Source of the DNA: Solirubrobacter deserti | GTDB taxonomy: Bacteria; Actinomycetota; Thermoleophilia; Solirubrobacterales; Solirubrobacteraceae | Direction: 5' to 3' | Assembly: GCF_027587175.1 (NCBI RefSeq) | Contig: NZ_JAPCID010000029.1 | Location: 1 to 46,596 of the forward strand | DNA length: 46,596 bases | Shown: positions 13,460-20,479 of the stretch, in pieces | How positions within the stretch are numbered: position 1 is the stretch's first letter | How the letters are laid out: each line of letters starts with the position of its first letter | Notes under the pieces: generated by a model | The model's input: only the letters and a program-made list of their open reading frames with translations | Databases searched by the model: none | What the model was told of the DNA's origin: nothing | Position numbers and translations under genes: made by a program

Positions 13460-14524
13460 TCAGACGCCGGCGCGGGCGTTCACGGCCTCGCGCAGCACGG
13501 CGGCCCAGGGCTCGGCGGCGCGCGGGAAGCTGCGATGCTCGGCTACGTACTCGCGCGCCGCGCGGCCGATGCGCTCGCGCTCGGCCTGGTCGTCGACCAG
13601 CCGCAGCAGCGCCGCCTCGGCCTCTTCGGGCGTCTCGGCGTGGACGCCGGTGACACCGTCCTCGATGTCGGGATAGACCTCGGGGTGGGCGACCAGCGGG
13701 ACGCCCAGCGCGCTGCACTCGAGCCAGCGCAGGTCGCTCTTGCCGCGGAACTGGTTGTTGCCGGCCGACGGCGCGAACGAGATGTCGAACAGCGTCATGG
13801 ACGCGGGGTAGGTCTCGATCCCGGCAACCGGGTACGAGATCGCCCGCTCCGGGCCGAACTCCTGGACGAAGACCGCCGCGGCGGGATGGCCGACCGAGAC
13901 GAAGCGCACCTCCTCGCGGGCGCGCATGACGTTGCGGATGGCCGGCTCCCAGCGCGCCAGCGACGCCTTGTGGCCGACGCCGCCGGCGAAGCCGAGCGTC
14001 ACGCCCTTGCGCTCGGGCTTGTTCCAGCCGTAGCGAAGCAGGTCGATGCCGTTCGGGCACGCCCACGTGCGCGGGCTGTGCGCCTTGTAGCGGCGCGCGA
14101 TGTAGTCGTTGGTGCCGATCAGGCCGTCCATCGCGCTCATCGCGGTCTCGAGGTCCTGCAGCCGGTCCTTGCCGAACTGGTCCGCGAGCTCGTGCTGCTT
14201 GTTGCGCCGCGCGCCCTGCAGGTAGTCGTCGATCTCGTACAGGAGCGTCACGCCCGCCTCGCGCAGGCGCCGGATGTGGGGCAGCCACGCCTTCGCGCTC
14301 GCGTACTGGATGACGATGACCTCGAAGCTCTCGAAGTCCTCGATGTCCGGCGGCGGGTTGCCGAGGCCGCCGGTGATGACGAGCTTGCGGCCGTCGTTCT
14401 GCGTGCCCCAGGTGGCGTACTCCGCACCGAGCGACGCCGCGGGGAGGAAGCAGCGGTAGTAGGCGACGGCGTTCGCGCCGGCGCCGCCGACGCCGAGGAA
14501 CAGGGTCTTGGGAATGTCCTGCAT
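13460..14524 (-). CDS. Glycosyltransferase, GT4/GT1-like, next to the flagellins
   Basis: A 354-residue protein from ATG 14524 (the longer frame runs through the upstream gene). N-terminal part KTLFLGVGGAGANAVAYYR, then VIVIQYASAKAWLPHI and LLYEIDDYLQGARRNKQ. C-terminal donor-binding domain: VTLGFAGGVGHKASLARWEP, then FRGKSDLRWLECSALGVPLV with the Glu typical of GT4 enzymes, and DIEDGVTGVHAETPEEAEAAL. A soluble GT-B enzyme. It overlaps the upstream GT2-like gene by one base (TGATG) and is cotranscribed with it. It sits directly downstream of five flagellin genes and behind a sigma-28-like promoter, so flagellin glycosylation is the leading idea. Confidence 0.85.
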   Translation of the reverse strand: MQDIPKTLFLGVGGAGANAVAYYRCFLPAASLGAEYATWGTQNDGRKLVITGGLGNPPPDIEDFESFEVIVIQYASAKAWLPHIRRLREAGVTLLYEIDDYLQGARRNKQHELADQFGKDRLQDLETAMSAMDGLIGTNDYIARRYKAHSPRTWACPNGIDLLRYGWNKPERKGVTLGFAGGVGHKASLARWEPAIRNVMRAREEVRFVSVGHPAAAVFVQEFGPERAISYPVAGIETYPASMTLFDISFAPSAGNNQFRGKSDLRWLECSALGVPLVAHPEVYPDIEDGVTGVHAETPEEAEAALLRLVDDQAERERIGRAAREYVAEHRSFPRAAEPWAAVLREAVNARAGV

Positions 14525-15300
14525 CAGACGATCTCCGGGCTCCAGCGTCGGAACGTTACACCCGAGTGCTTGACGCGCAGGCGATGCGCGGACGGCAGCT
14601 CGTCGTGCGGCTCGCTGTCGACGGGCGCCAGCCCACGGGCGCGCACGCTCGGCTCGAGCACGCACTGGCCGCCCGCCTCGCTCACGCGCAGGCAGAAGTC
14701 GAGCGCCGCGTGCGGGCCGTCGAGCAGCTCGTCGTAGCCGCCGACCTCGTCGATCCAGCGCCGGCGCACGAGCTGCAGCTCCGAGCTGACCGGGCACAGC
14801 AGCGGCTCGTGGACGTCCAGCAGCTCCTGCGGGACGTTCCGCAGCCGCGCCGCCCACGTGCGCCGGAACACGGAGAAGAAGTAGCCGGCCTGCCGGATCG
14901 TGCCGCCGGCCTCGGTGACGGCACCGCCGGCGACCGCGGCGAGCTCGCCGTCGGTGCCGGTGCGCGCGCGCAGCCGGTCCAGCCAGCCGCGCGCCTCGAA
15001 GATGAGCCCCGGGTTGACGAGGCAGGCGTCCATGTCGTGCGCGGCGGCGACGCTGAGGCCGACGTTCAGCGCGGCGGAATGGCCTTCGCCGTCCTCCTGG
15101 AGGACGTAGGCGCATTCGAGCTCGTTGGCGGCGACCTCGATCAGCTGCGCCTGCGGAGCGGGCGAGCGATCGTCGATCACGAGGGTCGGAGTGCCGGGCG
15201 CGCTCGCCTGGAGGGAGACGAGCGTCTGGAGGATCGGGTCGATCTCCTCGCTGGTCTCGGCCCGCACGGGGACGACGATGAGGGTCGGATCGGGTTCCAC
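14524..15300 (-). CDS. GT2-like glycosyltransferase, next to the flagellins
   Basis: GT-A fold protein: LIVVPVRAETSEEIDPIL, LVIDDRSPAPQAQLIEVA, VLQEDGEGHSAALNVGLSVA, a metal site region DACLVNPGLIF without a clear DxD, and RRRWIDEVGGYDELLDGPHA. The start is set at GTG 15300, 7 nt after a sigma-28-like -10. An in-frame TTG at 15324 gives eight more residues but would lie upstream of that -10. Neither has a Shine-Dalgarno sequence, which fits a leaderless mRNA. Length is about 258 residues. It is coupled to the GT4-like gene; together they may build a short glycan on flagellin. Confidence 0.75.
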   Translation of the reverse strand: MEPDPTLIVVPVRAETSEEIDPILQTLVSLQASAPGTPTLVIDDRSPAPQAQLIEVAANELECAYVLQEDGEGHSAALNVGLSVAAAHDMDACLVNPGLIFEARGWLDRLRARTGTDGELAAVAGGAVTEAGGTIRQAGYFFSVFRRTWAARLRNVPQELLDVHEPLLCPVSSELQLVRRRWIDEVGGYDELLDGPHAALDFCLRVSEAGGQCVLEPSVRARGLAPVDSEPHDELPSAHRLRVKHSGVTFRRWSPEIV

Positions 15301-15397: not shown

Positions 15398-16249
15398 CTA
15401 GCGGAGGAGCGAGAGGACGCCCTGCGGGGCCTGGTTGGCCTGCGCCAGCATCGAGGTGCCGGCCTGCTGCAGGATGTTCAGCTTCGTGAACTTGGTCATC
15501 TCAGCCGCCATGTCCACGTCACGGATCCGCGACTCCGCGGCCGTGAGGTTCTCCTGGTAGGTCGCCAGGTTGTTCAGACGGTGCTCCAGGCGGTTCTGAA
15601 TGGCGCCGTAGGTGCCACGCTGCTTGGAGACGTTGTCGATCGCCGACGTGAGGTCGGTCAGCGACATGCCCTCGAGCGCCGAGGCGACCTGCGTCGCCGT
15701 GGAGCCGGAGGCGGAGAACGCCGTGACGTTGGCGATGCCGCTCGCGGTCGAGGCGCCCGACAGCGGAGACGTGGCCATCGAGATGGTCTCGCCCTGGTCA
15801 GCGCCCACCTGGAAGGTGAACGACTGCGTGCCGTCGAGGAGCTTCTTGCCGTTGAACGACGTCTGCGTGAGGATGTTGCTGATCTCCTCGGAGATCTGCT
15901 TGACCTCGGCGCCGATGGCGTCCTTGTCGGACGTGTCGAGCGTGCCGGCACCGATCTGCACGCGCAGATCGCGGACGCGCTCGAGCATGCTGTGCACCTC
16001 GCCGAGGGCGCCTTCCGCGGTCTGGACCAGGGAGATGGCGTCCTGAGCGTTGCGCTGCGCCTGGCCGAGGCCGCTGATCTGGGCACGCATCTTCTCCGAG
16101 ATGCCCAGGCCGGCAGCGTCGTCCGCGGCGCGGTTGATGCGGTAGCCGCTGGAGAGCTTCTCCATGGCCTTCGAAGCCTGCGCGCCGGTGGCGGACAGCG
16201 TGCGGTGCGCGTTGAAGGCTTCGATGTTGTTCTGGATACGGAGGCCCAT
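15398..16249 (-). CDS. Flagellin 1 of 5
   Basis: A 283-residue flagellin, filament subunit exported by the flagellar type III system. Complete D0/D1 ends: [20 protein letters not shown] at the N-terminus and a C-terminus ending [20 protein letters not shown] plus GVLSLLR. The middle (about residues 150-205) is short, so there is little or no D2/D3 domain. This middle is the only part that differs strongly between the five copies; here it reads [20 protein letters not shown] followed by an Ala/Ser-rich segment. Start ATG 16249 has AAGGAG 7 nt upstream. It has its own promoter, leader hairpin and terminator. Confidence 0.97.
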   Translation of the reverse strand: MGLRIQNNIEAFNAHRTLSATGAQASKAMEKLSSGYRINRAADDAAGLGISEKMRAQISGLGQAQRNAQDAISLVQTAEGALGEVHSMLERVRDLRVQIGAGTLDTSDKDAIGAEVKQISEEISNILTQTSFNGKKLLDGTQSFTFQVGADQGETISMATSPLSGASTASGIANVTAFSASGSTATQVASALEGMSLTDLTSAIDNVSKQRGTYGAIQNRLEHRLNNLATYQENLTAAESRIRDVDMAAEMTKFTKLNILQQAGTSMLAQANQAPQGVLSLLR

Positions 16250-16313
16250 GATCTAACTCCTTGTTCGATCGGGTTGCTGAGGGCAGGAAAGCGAGGCGAC
16301 TCCCTGTCGCCTC
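16250..16313 (-). promoter_or_regulatory. Flagellin 1 leader with two GGA sites (candidate CsrA target)
   Basis: Hairpin 1 (16293-16313): 8-bp perfect stem GAGGCGAC/GTCGCCTC with loop AGGGA, giving ACAGGGA across stem and loop. It begins about where transcription should start. Site 2 (16256-16264): ACAAGGAGT over the Shine-Dalgarno, in a weaker stem (AAC/GTT plus one mismatch). Confidence 0.55.
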
Positions 16314-16321
16314 ACACAAAA

Positions 16322-16348
16322 AGATCGGCCCCGAGGGGCCGATCTTTA
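16322..16348 (-). promoter_or_regulatory. Flagellin 1 sigma-28 promoter, also a terminator-shaped palindrome
   Basis: Minus strand TAAAGATC (16341-16348), 11 nt, GCCGATCT (16322-16329). The two boxes are reverse complements. The whole element is therefore a strong hairpin with a short loop, followed by TTTTT, and can end transcription from flagellin gene 2. A second hairpin without T-run (16369-16390) lies between it and that gene. Confidence 0.7.
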
Positions 16349-16368
16349 GGGCACTTTCTGAGATTTTT

Positions 16369-16390
16369 CGGGGGCGCCGAGGCGCCCCCG
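16369..16390 (-). terminator. Hairpin after flagellin gene 2
   Basis: A perfect 10-bp stem CGGGGGCGCC/GGCGCCCCCG with a 2-nt loop, 10 nt after the stop of flagellin 2. It is followed by A-rich rather than T-rich sequence leftward, so it may act as a 3'-end stabiliser in front of the next hairpin. Confidence 0.5.
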
Positions 16391-16400
16391 AGAGTCACTG

Positions 16401-17258
16401 CTAGCGGAGCAGGGAGAGGACGCCCTGCGGGGCCTGGTTGGCCTGCGCCAGCATCGACGTACCGGCCTGCTGCAGGATGTTCAGCTTCGTGAACTTGGTC
16501 ATCTCAGCCGCCATGTCCACGTCACGGATGCGCGACTCCGCAGCCGTCAGATTCTCCTGGTAGGTCGCCAGGTTGTTCAGACGGTGCTCCAGACGGTTCT
16601 GGACCGCGCCGTAGGTGCCACGCTGCTTGGAGACGTTGTCGATCGCCGACGTGAGATCGGTCAGCGACATGGCCTCGAGGGCCGTCGCGACCTGGGTCGA
16701 CGTCGAAGCCGCGGCCGAGAAGGCCGTGACGTTGCCGACGCCGCTGACAGCCGCGCCGCCCGAGAGCGTCGAGGAGGCCAGGGAGATCGTCTCGCTCGCG
16801 TTGGCGCCGACCTGGAACGTGAAGGCCGAGCCGGCCGAGCCGTCGAGCAGCTTCTTGCCGTTGAACGACGTGTTGCTCAGGATGTTGCTGATCTCCTCGG
16901 AGATCTGCTTGACCTCGGCGCCGATGGCGTCCTTGTCGGTCGTGTCGAGCGTGCCGCCGCCGATCTGCACGCGCAGATCGCGGACGCGCTCGAGCATGGA
17001 GTGAACCTCGCCCAGGGCGCCTTCGGCGGTCTGAACCAGCGAGATCGCATCCTGCGCGTTGCGCTGCGCCTGACCCAGACCGGAGATCTGCGAACGCATC
17101 TTCTCGGAGATACCGAGGCCGGCCGCGTCGTCGGCGGCACGGTTGATGCGGTAGCCGCTGGAGAGCTTCTCCATGGCCTTGGACGCCTGCGCGCCGGTGG
17201 CGGTCAGCGTGCGGTGGGCGTTGAAAGCTTCAACGTTGTTCTGGATACGAAGGCCCAT
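16401..17258 (-). CDS. Flagellin 2 of 5
   Basis: A 285-residue flagellin with the same conserved ends as copy 1 ([21 protein letters not shown]-terminus GVLSLLR). The central segment reads [20 protein letters not shown] and is shared with flagellin 5. A 158-nt stretch (17017-17174) and an 89-nt stretch (16777-16865) are base-for-base identical to flagellin 5, a sign of gene conversion. Start ATG 17258 has AAGGAG just upstream, inside a hairpin loop. Separate promoter and leader. Confidence 0.97.
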
Positions 17259-17318
17259 GATTCAACACTCCTTGTTGATCGGGATGTAGGGCTTGTCGAG
17301 GCGACTCCCTGTCGCCTC
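17259..17318 (-). promoter_or_regulatory. Flagellin 2 leader with two GGA-loop hairpins
   Basis: Hairpin 1 (17298-17318): stem GAGGCGAC/GTCGCCTC, loop AGGGA. Hairpin 2 (17262-17278): perfect 6-bp stem TCAACA/TGTTGA with loop AGGAG, which is the Shine-Dalgarno itself; the sequence reads ACAAGGAG. Both match the ACANGGA core that CsrA binds in loops. Confidence 0.6.
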
Positions 17319-17326
17319 ACCCAAGA

Positions 17327-17353
17327 TGATCGGCCCCGAAGGGCCGATCTTGA
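17327..17353 (-). promoter_or_regulatory. Flagellin 2 sigma-28 promoter/palindrome
   Basis: Minus strand TCAAGATC (17346-17353), 11 nt, GCCGATCA (17327-17334). The internal stem GATCGGCCC/GGGCCGATC has a UUCG loop on the transcript. It doubles as the only terminator-like structure after flagellin 3. Confidence 0.65.
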
Positions 17354-17368
17354 GGACAGATGTGTGAC

Positions 17369-18208
17369 TTAGCGGAGCAGGGAGAGGACGCCCTGCGGGG
17401 CCTGGTTGGCCTGCGCCAGCATCGACGTACCGGCCTGCTGCAGGATGTTCAGCTTCGTGAACTTGGTCATCTCAGCCGCCATGTCCACGTCACGGATGCG
17501 CGACTCCGCAGCCGTCAGATTCTCCTGGTAGGTCGCCAGGTTGTTCAGACGGTGCTCCAGACGGTTCTGCACGGCGCCGTAGGTGCCACGCTGCTTGGAG
17601 ACGTTGTCGATCTGCGTCGTGAGGTCGGTCAGCGACATGGCCTCCAGGGCCGACGCGACGGTCGAGGCGGTGCCGGACGACCACGTCGTCACGCTGCCGA
17701 CGCCGGTGGCGGCGGTGGACAGCGTCGAGGACGCCATCGAGATCGTCTCGCCGTTGTCGGCACCGACCTGGAAGGTGAAGCCGTTGCTGCCGTCGAGCAG
17801 CTTCTTGCCGTTGAAGGACGTCTGGGAGATGATGTTGCCGATCTCCTCGGAGATCTGCTTGACCTCGGCGCCGATGGCCTCCTTGTCGGACTGGTCCAGC
17901 GTGCCGCCGCCGATCTGGACGCGCAGGTCACGCACGCGCTCGAGCATGCTGTGGACCTCGCCCAGCGCGCCTTCCGCCGTCTGGACCAGCGAGATCGCGT
18001 CCTGCGCGTTGCGCTGCGCCTGGCCGAGGCCGCTGATCTGGGCACGCATCTTCTCGGAGATGCCGAGGCCGGCGGCGTCGTCGGCCGCGCGGTTGATGCG
18101 GTAGCCGCTGGAGAGCTTCTCCATGGCCTTGGAGGCCTGGTTGCCGGTGGCGGTCAGGGTGCGGTGCGCGTTGAAGGCTTCAACGTTGTTCTGGATGCGA
18201 AGGCCCAT
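17369..18208 (-). CDS. Flagellin 3 of 5
   Basis: A 279-residue flagellin. ATG 18208 is chosen, giving [12 protein letters not shown] as in the other copies; a GTG three codons upstream overlaps the Shine-Dalgarno and is rejected. The centre is the shortest of the five: [20 protein letters not shown], then a Trp-containing stretch [10 protein letters not shown]. The N-terminal conserved half shares 195 identical bases (17909-18103) with flagellin 4. The 72 bases around the start and leader (18198-18269) are identical to flagellin 5. Confidence 0.97.
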
Positions 18209-18268
18209 GGTCAACACTCCTTGTTGATCGTGGTGAGGGCTATTTCAGAAGCGACTCCCTGTCGCCTC
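18209..18268 (-). promoter_or_regulatory. Flagellin 3 leader with two GGA-loop hairpins
   Basis: Hairpin 1 (18248-18268): GAGGCGAC paired with GTCGCTTC (one G-U), loop AGGGA. Hairpin 2 (18211-18227): stem TCAACA/TGTTGA, loop AGGAG carrying the Shine-Dalgarno. Confidence 0.6.
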
Positions 18269-18276
18269 AAACACGA

Positions 18277-18303
18277 AGATCGGCCCCGAGGGGCCGATCT
18301 TTA
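18277..18303 (-). promoter_or_regulatory. Flagellin 3 sigma-28 promoter/palindrome
   Basis: Minus strand TAAAGATC (18296-18303), 11 nt, GCCGATCT (18277-18284). Same palindrome as for flagellin 1. It lies 30 nt after the stop of flagellin 4 and is followed by TTCGTGTTT. Confidence 0.7.
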
Positions 18304-18332
18304 GCGCACTGCGTAAATTGTCGACGCGGGGA

Positions 18333-19187
18333 CTAGCCCTTGAGCAGCGAGAGCACGCCCTGCGGGGACTGGTTGGCCTGCGCGAGCATCGAGGTGCCGG
18401 CCTGCTGCAGGATGTTCAGCTTCGTGAACTTGGTCATCTCAGCCGCCATGTCTACGTCACGGATGCGCGACTCGGCCGCCGTGAGGTTCTCCTGGTAGGT
18501 CGCCAGGTTGTTCAGACGGTGCTCCAGGCGGTTCTGGATCGCGCCGAAGGTGCCACGCTGCTCGGAGACGTTCTCGATCGCCGACGTGAGGTCGGTGAGC
18601 GTCATGGCCTCGAGCGCGGAGGCGACCTGCGAAGCGGTGTTGGCGGAAGCGGAGAGCGTCGTGACGTTGCCGACGCCGTTCTGCGCCAGCGTGCCCGACA
18701 GCGTCGAGGACGCCATCGAGATCGTCTCGCCCTGGTTGGCGCCGACCTGGAACGTGAACGAGTTGCTGCCGTCGAGCAGCTTCTTGCCGTTGAAGGAGGT
18801 GTTCGTGAGGATGTTGCTGATCTCGTCGGCGATCTGCTTGACCTCGGCGCCGATGGCCTCCTTGTCGGAGGTGTCGAGGGTGCCGTTGCCGATCTGGACG
18901 CGCAGGTCACGCACGCGCTCGAGCATGCTGTGGACCTCGCCCAGCGCGCCTTCCGCCGTCTGGACCAGCGAGATCGCGTCCTGCGCGTTGCGCTGCGCCT
19001 GGCCGAGGCCGCTGATCTGGGCACGCATCTTCTCGGAGATGCCGAGGCCGGCGGCGTCGTCGGCCGCGCGGTTGATGCGGTAACCGCTGGAGAGCTTCTC
19101 CATCGCCTTCGAAGCCTGCGCAGACGTGGCGCTGAGCTGACGGTGCGTGTTGAAGGCTTCGATGTTGTTCTGGATGCGAAGACCCAT
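18333..19187 (-). CDS. Flagellin 4 of 5
   Basis: A 284-residue flagellin and the most divergent copy: [20 protein letters not shown] at the N-terminus and GVLSLLKG at the C-terminus, with two changes where the others have [13 protein letters not shown]. The central segment reads [20 protein letters not shown]. Its leader and promoter are also divergent, with no TCAACA hairpin and a degenerate -10. It may be a minor or differently timed subunit. It shares 195 identical bases (18888-19082) with flagellin 3. Confidence 0.97.
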
Positions 19188-19232
19188 TGCGGGAGGACTC
19201 CTTGTGAGGAACTACGGCGACTCCGTGTCGCC
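19188..19232 (-). promoter_or_regulatory. Flagellin 4 leader, divergent but keeps the GGA-loop hairpin
   Basis: Hairpin 1 (19216-19232): 6-bp stem GGCGAC/GTCGCC with loop ACGGA, so the core reads ACACGGA. The variable position of ACANGGA has changed while ACA and GGA are kept. ACAAGGAG precedes the start by about 10 nt, but its flanks pair differently (AGGAGTCCT). Confidence 0.5.
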
Positions 19233-19249
19233 TCTGACGGACACGACAT

Positions 19250-19277
19250 GTGTCGGTCATCCGTCCGAGCTCCTTTA
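19250..19277 (-). promoter_or_regulatory. Flagellin 4 sigma-28-like promoter (weak)
   Basis: Minus strand TAAA (19274-19277), 16 nt, ACCGACAC (19250-19257). The spacing and ACCGACAC/GCCGACAC form match the CHAP gene promoter rather than the other flagellins. Confidence 0.45.
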
Positions 19278-19296
19278 GTCCTCCACAACGACAGCT

Positions 19297-19326
19297 GCCC
19301 CCCGGTCCGCTTTCGGACCGAGGGGC
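19297..19326 (-). terminator. Terminator-like hairpin after flagellin gene 5
   Basis: A 13-bp stem (one G-U pair) with an AAAG loop on the transcript, 22 nt after the stop of flagellin 5. No long T-run follows. Confidence 0.55.
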
Positions 19327-19347
19327 GCTGTGCACTGCTGGCTTGGC

Positions 19348-20211
19348 TTAGCGCAGGAGCGAGAGGACGCCCTGCGGGGCCTGGTTGGCCTGGGCCAGCA
19401 TCGAGGTGCCGGCCTGCTGCAGGATGTTCAGCTTCGTGAACTTGGTCATCTCAGCCGCCATGTCCACGTCACGGATGCGCGACTCCGCAGCCGTCAGATT
19501 CTCCTGGTAGGTCGCCAGGTTGTTCAGACGGTGCTCCAGACGGTTCTGGACCGCGCCGTAGGTGCCACGCTGCTCGGAGACGTTGTCGATCGCCGAGGTG
19601 AGGTTGGTCAGGGACAGACCGGCCGCCTCGAGGGACGTCACGGCCGCGCCGGCGTTCGCCGCGCCCGAGAGCGCCAGGACCTCGGTGAGGCCGCCGCCCG
19701 CGATGGCCGCGGTCGACAGCGTCGAGGACGCCAGGGAGATCGTCTCGCTCGCGTTGGCGCCGACCTGGAACGTGAAGGCCGAGCCGGCCGAGCCGTCGAG
19801 CAGCTTCTTGCCGTTGAAGGACGTGTTGGTGAGGATGTCCTTGATCTCGGTCGCGATCTGGATGACCTCGGCGCCGATGGCCTCCTTGTCGGAGGTGTCG
19901 AGCGTGCCGCCACCGATCTGGACCTTCAGGTCTCGCACCCGCTCGAGCATGGAGTGAACCTCGCCCAGCGCGCCTTCGGCGGTCTGAACCAGCGAGATCG
20001 CATCCTGCGCGTTGCGCTGCGCCTGACCCAGACCGGAGATCTGCGAACGCATCTTCTCGGAGATACCGAGGCCGGCCGCGTCGTCGGCGGCACGGTTGAT
20101 GCGGTAGCCGCTGGAGAGCTTCTCCATCGCCTTGGACGCCTGCACGCCCGTGGCGGTCAGCGTGCGGTGCGCGTTGAACGCCTCAACGTTGTTCTGGATA
20201 CGAAGGCCCAT
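19348..20211 (-). CDS. Flagellin 5 of 5
   Basis: A 287-residue flagellin from ATG 20211 (an upstream GTG overlapping the Shine-Dalgarno is rejected). Conserved ends as in copies 1-3. The central part is the longest of the set, with [20 protein letters not shown] shared with flagellin 2, then a unique stretch AIAGGGLTEVLALSGAANAG. In D1 it differs from the others at [20 protein letters not shown]. First of the five in transcription order. Its promoter lies inside the 3' end of the preceding small gene. Confidence 0.97.
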   Translation of the reverse strand: MGLRIQNNVEAFNAHRTLTATGVQASKAMEKLSSGYRINRAADDAAGLGISEKMRSQISGLGQAQRNAQDAISLVQTAEGALGEVHSMLERVRDLKVQIGGGTLDTSDKEAIGAEVIQIATEIKDILTNTSFNGKKLLDGSAGSAFTFQVGANASETISLASSTLSTAAIAGGGLTEVLALSGAANAGAAVTSLEAAGLSLTNLTSAIDNVSEQRGTYGAVQNRLEHRLNNLATYQENLTAAESRIRDVDMAAEMTKFTKLNILQQAGTSMLAQANQAPQGVLSLLR

Positions 20212-20271
20212 GGTCAACACTCCTTGTTGATCGTGGTGAGGGCTATTTCAGAAGCGACTCCCTGTCGCCTC
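20212..20271 (-). promoter_or_regulatory. Flagellin 5 leader with two GGA-loop hairpins
   Basis: Hairpin 1 (20251-20271): GAGGCGAC/GTCGCTTC, loop AGGGA. Hairpin 2 (20214-20230): TCAACA/TGTTGA, loop AGGAG with the Shine-Dalgarno. The leader is identical to that of flagellin 3 over 72 bases and overlaps the stop of the upstream gene. Confidence 0.6.
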
Positions 20272-20479
20272 AGCCGTAGTAGTCGGTGCCTCTCCGCGGT
20301 TCTTGAGGTGATTTCTTGGGCGGTCGTCTTGCTGACCGCTCGTCCACCTCGCGCCGCTTCTCCTCACGCTGGCGGCGCGCCTCCTCCCGCTCGGCGGGGG
20401 ACAGCAGGCGCGGCTTGTCGACGCGCTCGATCGCGCCCGTGCTGGGGTCGCGGCGGATGACGCGGTAGATCGGGTCCAT
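20270..20479 (-). CDS. Small charged protein, unknown function
   Basis: A 69-residue protein, MDPIYRVIRRDPSTGAIERV..., with a highly basic and acidic C-terminal half (AEREEARRQREEKRREVDER) ending DYYG. ATG 20479 is taken because it overlaps the stop of the previous gene by one base. No known domain; it is not CsrA or FliW. It is the last gene before the flagellins in the flhF-PilZ run, so it may be a flagellar accessory protein. Confidence 0.65.
   Translation of the reverse strand: MDPIYRVIRRDPSTGAIERVDKPRLLSPAEREEARRQREEKRREVDERSARRPPKKSPQEPRRGTDYYG
20280..20306 (-). promoter_or_regulatory. Flagellin 5 sigma-28-like promoter inside the upstream gene
   Basis: Minus strand TCAAGAAC (20299-20306), 11 nt, ACCGACTA (20280-20287). 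It is not palindromic because it must also encode the C-terminus of the 69-residue protein. Confidence 0.45.

What the first reader, a model, noticed from the sequence alone, without database searches (positions are those of the whole stretch)
16250..20271. All five flagellin leaders carry hairpins with an ACANGGA loop; at three genes the Shine-Dalgarno itself sits in such a loop
Seen: the predicted 5' end of each flagellin mRNA is a stem-loop, GAGGCGAC/GTCGCCTC with loop AGGGA (16293-16313, 17298-17318, 18248-18268, 20251-20271). In flagellin 4 the form is GGCGAC/GTCGCC with loop ACGGA (19216-19232). The variable base changes (G to C) but ACA and GGA stay, and stem changes in copies 3 and 5 keep pairing through G-U. 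A second hairpin TCAACA/TGTTGA with loop AGGAG holds the Shine-Dalgarno in copies 2, 3 and 5. Established: CsrA binds ACANGGA/ARGGA in loops, and in Bacillus the flagellin mRNA has two such sites, one over the Shine-Dalgarno, controlled by CsrA-FliW. Inference: a two-site CsrA switch controls five flagellins in an actinobacterium. Neither csrA nor fliW is in this window. A simple mRNA-protecting 5' hairpin is the rival explanation for hairpin 1, but it does not explain the conserved loop.
Basis: partly seen in the sequence, partly recalled or inferred. Interest (0 to 1): 0.78.

Follow-up and report, generated by a model that had tools for sequence, protein, structure and literature searches.

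The report
Two-site CsrA switch on flagellin mRNAs
The five flagellin genes of this soil bacterium start their mRNAs with a small hairpin, and carry a second motif over the ribosome-binding site, that look like the docking sites by which the protein CsrA shuts off flagellin production in Bacillus; the system is known, but here sequence comparison shows it kept across a poorly studied actinobacterial lineage.

Summary
All five leaders carry an ANGGA-loop hairpin at the predicted mRNA 5' end, and CAAGGAG over the Shine-Dalgarno (in a perfect hairpin in copies 2, 3, 5; one mismatch in copy 1; none in copy 4). The genome (Solirubrobacter deserti CPCC 204708) has fliW-csrA about 11 kb beyond the window and a second csrA elsewhere. 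In relatives the first stem changes with compensation (94.4% of 301 cells paired; covariation score reached by 0 of 500 shuffles). A GGA-loop hairpin of at least 6 bp is in 62 of 71 stand-alone flagellin leaders, but in 0 of 11 with csrA just upstream. This supports a Bacillus hag-type CsrA-FliW switch; binding is inferred, not tested. It is a new member of a known kind: CsrA control of an actinobacterial flagellin was proposed in 2008 for Kineococcus. Less expected: this order has two csrA paralogues. The fliW-linked one keeps the asparagine aligned with N55, needed for FliW binding in Bacillus (18 of 18); the other keeps it in Solirubrobacter (6 of 6) but in 0 of 32 others sampled, suggesting a FliW-gated and a FliW-blind CsrA.

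The parts
15398..16249 (-). flagellin 1 CDS (283 aa)
   Evidence: ORF, translation, PF00669
16250..16270 (-). BS2 of copy 1: GATCgAAC-AAGGA-GTTaGATC over the Shine-Dalgarno, one mismatch
   Evidence: sequence, in the MFE
16293..16313 (-). BS1 of copy 1: GAGGCGAC-AGGGA-GTCGCCTC
16324..16348 (-). sigma-28-like promoter TAAAG..GCCGAT, superposed on a terminator-like palindrome
   Evidence: consensus recalled
16401..17258 (-). flagellin 2 CDS (285 aa)
17262..17278 (-). BS2 of copy 2: TCAACA-AGGAG-TGTTGA
   Evidence: sequence; SD hairpin in the MFE
17298..17318 (-). BS1 of copy 2: GAGGCGAC-AGGGA-GTCGCCTC
17329..17353 (-). sigma-28-like promoter TCAAG..GCCGAT with palindrome
   Evidence: consensus recalled
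17369..18208 (-). flagellin 3 CDS (279 aa from the conserved ATG)
18211..18227 (-). BS2 of copy 3: TCAACA-AGGAG-TGTTGA
   Evidence: sequence; full hairpin not in the MFE
18248..18268 (-). BS1 of copy 3: GAGGCGAC-AGGGA-GTCGCTTC (one G-U)
18279..18303 (-). sigma-28-like promoter TAAAG..GCCGAT with palindrome
   Evidence: consensus recalled
18333..19187 (-). flagellin 4 CDS (284 aa)
19198..19206 (-). Shine-Dalgarno CACAAGGAG of copy 4, no hairpin
19216..19232 (-). BS1 of copy 4: GGCGAC-ACGGA-GTCGCC
   Evidence: not in the MFE
19252..19277 (-). sigma-28-like promoter TAAAG..ACCGAC, without a palindrome across it
   Evidence: consensus recalled
19348..20211 (-). flagellin 5 CDS (287 aa), first gene of the array
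20214..20230 (-). BS2 of copy 5: TCAACA-AGGAG-TGTTGA
   Evidence: sequence; full hairpin not in the MFE
20251..20271 (-). BS1 of copy 5: GAGGCGAC-AGGGA-GTCGCTTC (one G-U)
20282..20306 (-). sigma-28-like promoter TCAAG..ACCGAC of the first flagellin gene
   Evidence: read by eye; not in the scan, where copy 5 had been collapsed onto copy 3

Best explanation
The leaders are hag-type CsrA-binding translational operators. A sigma-28-like promoter starts each flagellin mRNA just before hairpin 1 (BS1), a high-affinity CsrA site with an ANGGA loop. One CsrA dimer would bind BS1 and bridge to CAAGGAG (BS2), which is the Shine-Dalgarno, and so block the ribosome. FliW, encoded next to the flagellar csrA, would free the mRNA by binding CsrA; unsecreted flagellin would bind FliW and restore repression. 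Shown by computation: both sites, their covariation, csrA and fliW in the genome and in nearly all flagellated relatives searched, and the sequence match of the fliW-linked CsrA and of FliW to the solved CsrA-FliW pair. Inferred: the transcription start, CsrA binding, repression, FliW release, and which of the two CsrA proteins acts.
For: csrA twice and fliW once in the genome, in the order flgN-flgK-flgL-fliW-csrA. FliW and the linked CsrA each match a chain of entry 5dmb. BS1 covariation: 94.4% of 301 cells paired against 79.3% in shuffles; 36 two-sided cells against 8.8; covariation score reached by 0 of 500 shuffles; 6 of 7 pairs changed on both sides (9 of 500 shuffles reach that); slid structures fall to 31-54% (on 43 of the 54 distinct segments). 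All 54: 359 of 378 cells paired over 7 pairs, and the free loop base is T 23, A 11, C 11, G 9. ANGGA hairpin with stem of at least 6 bp: 55 of 82 Thermoleophilia leaders against 0.2% of shuffles; 16 of 49 other Actinomycetota and 15 of 49 Bacillota and others against 0.3%. GGA-loop hairpin of at least 6 bp in 62 of 71 stand-alone leaders, 0 of 11 with csrA within 500 bases upstream. The one stand-alone leader of 71 with no ANGGA stem of 3 bp or more (L031) is from G012, where no fliW and only a csrA1-type csrA was found. BS2 stem of at least 4 bp in 49 of 82 against 4.4% with the SD held fixed and flanks shuffled, in ten different stems such as CAAC/GTTG, CATC/GATG and CTTC/GAAG. ANGGAN hairpin loops and the two-site hag mechanism are described in PMC7652899 (passages).
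Against: No binding or expression data. Fold energies are not unusual (z -0.45 to -2.24); the BS1 hairpin of copy 4 and the full BS2 hairpins of copies 3 and 5 are not in the MFE. Copy 4 has no SD hairpin. 9 of 71 stand-alone leaders miss the 6-bp stem: six have the ANGGA loop on 3 bp, two on 4-5 bp, one not at all. In the wider groups the 6-bp ANGGA hairpin is found in only 16 of 49 and 15 of 49. csrA occurs in 64 of 65 flagellated Actinomycetota, so there is next to no csrA-minus contrast within the phylum. PMC7652899 notes that very stable stems may be disadvantageous for CsrA binding, and these stems are 6-8 bp and GC-rich. The strain is described as non-motile on R2A.
Confidence: 0.87

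Rival explanations
1. Hairpin 1 is only a 5' stabiliser that protects a long-lived mRNA; the GGA loop is incidental.
For: It sits close behind the sigma-28-like -10 element: 8-11 nt in 19 of 28 Solirubrobacter leaders, 14-17 nt in 5, element not found in 4. Stems are GC-rich and strong.
Against: The loop is not free. Among leaders whose longest hairpin has at least 6 bp, GGA is in the loop in 45 of 74 (shuffles 60 of 687), 20 of 42 (55 of 520) and 14 of 43 (33 of 495) in the three groups. A Thermomicrobium plasmid flagellin has the same kind of hairpin; 10 of 10 Pseudomonadota plasmid flagellins have no ANGGA stem.
Confidence: 0.07
2. The inverted repeat is a DNA operator for a dimeric transcription factor at the sigma-28 promoter.
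For: It is an inverted repeat directly behind the promoter.
Against: Half-sites change with compensation (GGCAAC/GTTGCC, GGCCAC/GTGGCC, GGCCGC/GCGGCC), which an operator would hardly tolerate, while the asymmetric centre ANGGA recurs.
Confidence: 0.03
3. The second hairpin is only a consequence of the Shine-Dalgarno plus flanking composition.
For: An SD core is present in 77 of 82 leaders anyway, and 33 of 82 lack a stem of at least 4 bp. In copies 3 and 5 the full hairpin is not in the MFE.
Against: With the SD kept and flanks shuffled, a stem of at least 4 bp appears in 4.4%; observed 49 of 82, through ten different complementary stems.
Confidence: 0.1

Closest known systems
Bacillus subtilis hag leader, CsrA-FliW-Hag loop (PMC6529632 and PMC7652899, passages; gene order and promoter class recalled)
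   Same: Two CsrA sites, one over the SD; sigma-28-class promoter; fliW-csrA behind flgK-flgL; flagellin as target
   Different: Five tandem targets here; fliW and csrA about 37 kb from the flagellins; a second csrA in the genome
Kineococcus radiotolerans flagellin Krad1626 (PMC2587704, passages)
   Same: Actinobacterial flagellin whose SD region matches B. subtilis BS2 (9 of 12 bases); CsrA control proposed
   Different: Only BS2 is named in the passages that I saw; no hairpins or comparison across genomes there
Clostridioides difficile and Campylobacter jejuni FliW-CsrA control of flagellin (PMC8523840, PMC4894983; search listings with abstract starts only)
   Same: FliW and CsrA govern flagellin synthesis
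   Different: Leaders not compared here

Membership tests
hag-type CsrA-FliW flagellin control | csrA in the genome | tested here: met
   two PF02599 matches over the cut-off
hag-type CsrA-FliW flagellin control | fliW in the genome, next to csrA | tested here: met
   PF02623 at C46:57275-57622, csrA at 57694-57849
hag-type CsrA-FliW flagellin control | A GGA site over the flagellin Shine-Dalgarno | tested here: met
   CAAGGAG in all five copies; hairpin perfect in three, with a mismatch in one, absent in copy 4
hag-type CsrA-FliW flagellin control | Second upstream site, A(N)GGA in a hairpin loop | tested here: met
   five of five; covariation in relatives
hag-type CsrA-FliW flagellin control | CsrA binds the leader and represses translation | not testable with these tools
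   needs gel shift and reporter
hag-type CsrA-FliW flagellin control | CsrA keeps the FliW-contact residue N55 | tested here: met
   both CsrA proteins of this genome have N at the position that I align with N55 (recalled numbering); N55D is deficient in FliW binding in B. subtilis (PMC6529632, passages)
hag-type CsrA-FliW flagellin control | FliW binds flagellin and CsrA | not testable with these tools
   only sequence relationship to the solved pair
A described Rfam family | match over the gathering score | tested here: not met
   0 in the window; one sub-threshold match at 20311-20386, outside the hairpins

The most novel reading that the evidence does not exclude
In Solirubrobacterales flagellin control is split between two CsrA proteins: a FliW-gated flagellar one (CsrA2, beside fliW) and a FliW-blind one (CsrA1), found also in relatives without a flagellin match and in this genome near genes for enolase, a DivIC-like protein and malic enzyme, which can hold the same GGA leaders off regardless of secretion. 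In Solirubrobacter CsrA1 carries the N55-aligned asparagine, so both may answer to FliW. Flagellin genes placed just behind csrA have given up BS1 because their synthesis is tied to that of the repressor itself.
Probability: 0.25. Interest if true: 0.6.

Novelty: new member of a known kind. Interest (0 to 1): 0.42.

Why it matters
It gives comparative evidence that the two-site CsrA leader is a widely kept flagellin control element (strongest in Thermoleophilia, present in part of the other Actinomycetota and Bacillota leaders sampled, and in one Thermomicrobium leader), with no match over threshold in the Rfam copy searched. It also predicts a division of labour between two CsrA paralogues, testable with purified proteins and short RNAs. 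The mechanism itself is known from Bacillus.

Tried and rejected
A contrast of csrA-positive and csrA-negative flagellated Actinomycetota was planned but is hardly available: csrA in 64 of 65, fliW in 63 of 65. The one genome without a csrA match (G221) has fliW and its flagellin on a short contig, and its leader was inconclusive. I used plasmid flagellins instead: 0 of 10 from Pseudomonadota have an ANGGA stem of any length (two of them have another GGA loop on 4-5 bp); the three stand-alone leaders from other lineages have ANGGA stems of 8 bp (Arthrobacter), 8 bp (Thermomicrobium) and 5 bp (Jeotgalibacillus); a B. licheniformis hag 6 bases behind csrA has 3 bp. These 14 were picked by me from 60 listed rows of 185 records, passing over the many Pantoea, Salmonella and E. 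coli rows; absence of FliW or CsrA in their hosts was not tested here.

Further genomic sites of the BS1 pattern: counts at up to 3 mismatches match the reversed-pattern control (153/150 against 148/162). Of the 24 listed non-flagellin matches with 1-2 mismatches I looked at 15; each is covered by an open frame of at least 100 codons, a weak test in a GC-rich genome. I claim no wider BS1 regulon and have not excluded one. Rfam gave nothing over threshold. A covariance model and structure predictions were not run.

The segments were anchored on CANGGAG, so the loop letters and the closing C-G pair of those tables are fixed by construction; 25 of 82 leaders lacked the anchor. Two anchored rows are not true BS1 sites and were kept (L098 first anchor; L074, behind csrA). 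In the N55 count 23 loci from outside the order were left out; the four from the same class but other orders (L215, L225, L246, L247) have an asparagine there or next to it.

Full report
Observation. The window lies on contig C46 of a 7.09 Mb genome. The flagellin 2 protein matches Solirubrobacter sp. CPCC 204708 with 100% identity, the type strain of S. deserti, described as non-motile on R2A (PMC10722151, passages). Five flagellin genes lie in tandem on the minus strand. Copies 3 and 5 are identical over the last 60 leader bases, so the window holds four distinct leaders. CAAGGAG is the Shine-Dalgarno in all five. It is framed by TCAACA/TGTTGA in copies 2, 3 and 5, and by an eight-position stem with one mismatch in copy 1; copy 4 has no stem.

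Chance. In the genome the pattern GGCGACANGGAGTCGCC has six matches with at most one mismatch: the five leaders and one inside a long coding frame. At up to three mismatches the counts match the control. Single-sequence folding does not by itself make the case: z-scores run from -0.45 to -2.24, the MFE of copy 4 lacks BS1 and those of copies 3 and 5 lack the full SD hairpin.

Comparison. Flagellin genes were found in 18 of 41 relatives and in 50 of 296 genomes drawn from the phylum, and 79 named loci were fetched from genome contigs. From these I extracted 180 distinct leaders, 82 of them in a Thermoleophilia set. A hairpin with an ANGGA loop (5 or 6 nt) and a stem of at least 6 bp, between -110 and -15, occurs in 55 of 82, against 0.2% of dinucleotide shuffles; in 16 of 49 other Actinomycetota and 15 of 49 Bacillota and others, against 0.3%. 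Fifty-four distinct segments anchored on CANGGAG pair in 359 of 378 cells over seven pairs, and the free loop base is T 23, A 11, C 11, G 9. On 43 of these 54, 94.4% of 301 cells pair, six of seven pairs show changes on both sides (9 of 500 shuffles reach six), and no shuffle of 500 reaches the covariation score. The SD hairpin is kept too: a stem of at least 4 bp in 49 of 82 against 4.4% when the SD is held and the flanks are shuffled, through ten different stems. GGA-to-GGA distances are 17-47 nt over 55 leaders.

Natural contrast. Eleven of the 82 flagellin genes have csrA within 500 bases upstream. None has a GGA-loop hairpin of at least 6 bp; 62 of the 71 others do. Of the nine exceptions six have the ANGGA loop on 3 bp, two on 4-5 bp; the last, L031, has none and comes from G012, a genome in which no fliW and only a csrA1-type csrA was found. 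A B. licheniformis plasmid hag gene 6 bases behind csrA has only a 3-bp stem; Arthrobacter, Thermomicrobium and Jeotgalibacillus plasmid flagellins have 8, 8 and 5 bp; ten Pseudomonadota plasmid flagellins have no ANGGA stem. I take this as the best evidence that the element answers to CsrA, with the caveat that I chose these 14 rows and that G012 is one draft genome.

Machinery. fliW and csrA2 lie in the order flgN-flgK-flgL-fliW-csrA2, about 11 kb beyond the window. FliW and CsrA2 each match a chain of entry 5dmb. Among 65 flagellated Actinomycetota 64 have csrA and 63 fliW. A second csrA (csrA1) lies on C30 near genes for enolase (named by eye), a DivIC-like protein and malic enzyme. csrA occurs in 39 of 41 relatives, including 21 of 23 in which no flagellin was found, so CsrA in this order also has work outside the flagellum. 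In 18 of 18 genomes of the order with a CsrA2, it lies beside fliW. A change of N55 to D makes B. subtilis CsrA deficient in FliW binding (PMC6529632, passages). The residue that I align with N55 (recalled numbering) is N in 18 of 18 CsrA2 and 6 of 6 Solirubrobacter CsrA1, but in 0 of 32 CsrA1 of the other sampled genera of the order. That the latter are blind to FliW is inference.

Promoter. A sigma-28-like element TNAAG-N-CCGA (consensus recalled) was found before 36 of 57 anchored hairpins. In 28 Solirubrobacter leaders it ends 8-11 nt before the stem in 19, 14-17 nt in 5 (window copy 4 among them), and was not found in 4.

Prior knowledge. Two CsrA sites on hag, one over the SD, and FliW antagonism are established (PMC7652899, PMC6529632, passages). 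For Kineococcus radiotolerans a BS2-like SD was noted and CsrA control proposed in 2008 (PMC2587704, passages). Actinobacteria are listed among phyla that may use FliW (PMC4682653, passages), and a survey of actinobacterial flagella included CsrA and FliW among its queries (PMC10746217, passages). My searches (CsrA, FliW, flagellin with Actinobacteria; CsrA with Thermoleophilia genera; CsrA, flagellin, leader; CsrA with Actinobacteria) showed me no description of these leaders; the library holds open-licence papers only, and I saw listings and passages, not whole texts.

Verdict. A new member of a known kind, with strong comparative support and no experiment. The paralogue split and the absence of BS1 behind csrA are the parts worth a specialist's time.

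Noticed in passing
16324-16348, 17329-17353, 18279-18303 and relatives L058, L059, L077: Between many Solirubrobacter flagellin genes a terminator-like palindrome (AAGATCGGCC..GGCCGATCTT, 9-13 bp) coincides with the -35 to -10 stretch of the sigma-28-like promoter of the next gene. A palindrome of at least 8 bp lies inside 17 of 26 such promoters, against 0.7% with the spacer shuffled. Copy 4 lacks it, and copy 5, first of the array, by eye.
   Followed up: partly
G000:C30:106536-106694 (L001, L007): A second csrA outside the flagellar region, near genes for enolase, a DivIC-like protein and malic enzyme; csrA is also present in 21 of 23 relatives without a flagellin match.
   Followed up: yes
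L028, L030, L037, L038, L047, L067, L069, L074, L088, L093, L095: Flagellin genes with csrA within 500 bases upstream; none has the upstream GGA-loop hairpin of at least 6 bp.
   Followed up: yes
L031 (G012:C21): The only stand-alone leader of 71 with no ANGGA stem of 3 bp or more belongs to a genome with no fliW match and only a csrA1-type csrA.
   Followed up: partly
whole genome: The strain is described as non-motile although it carries five flagellin genes, flhA, flgK, flgL, fliW and csrA.
   Followed up: no
13460-15115, minus strand: ORF downstream of the flagellin array; the C-terminal part of its translation resembles a glycosyltransferase by eye, perhaps for flagellin glycosylation; not searched.
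   Followed up: no
L058 and L059 (with L057): Two congeners have nine flagellin genes in an array, each with an ANGGA hairpin loop in its leader; a sigma-28-like element was found before eight of the nine in L058.
   Followed up: partly
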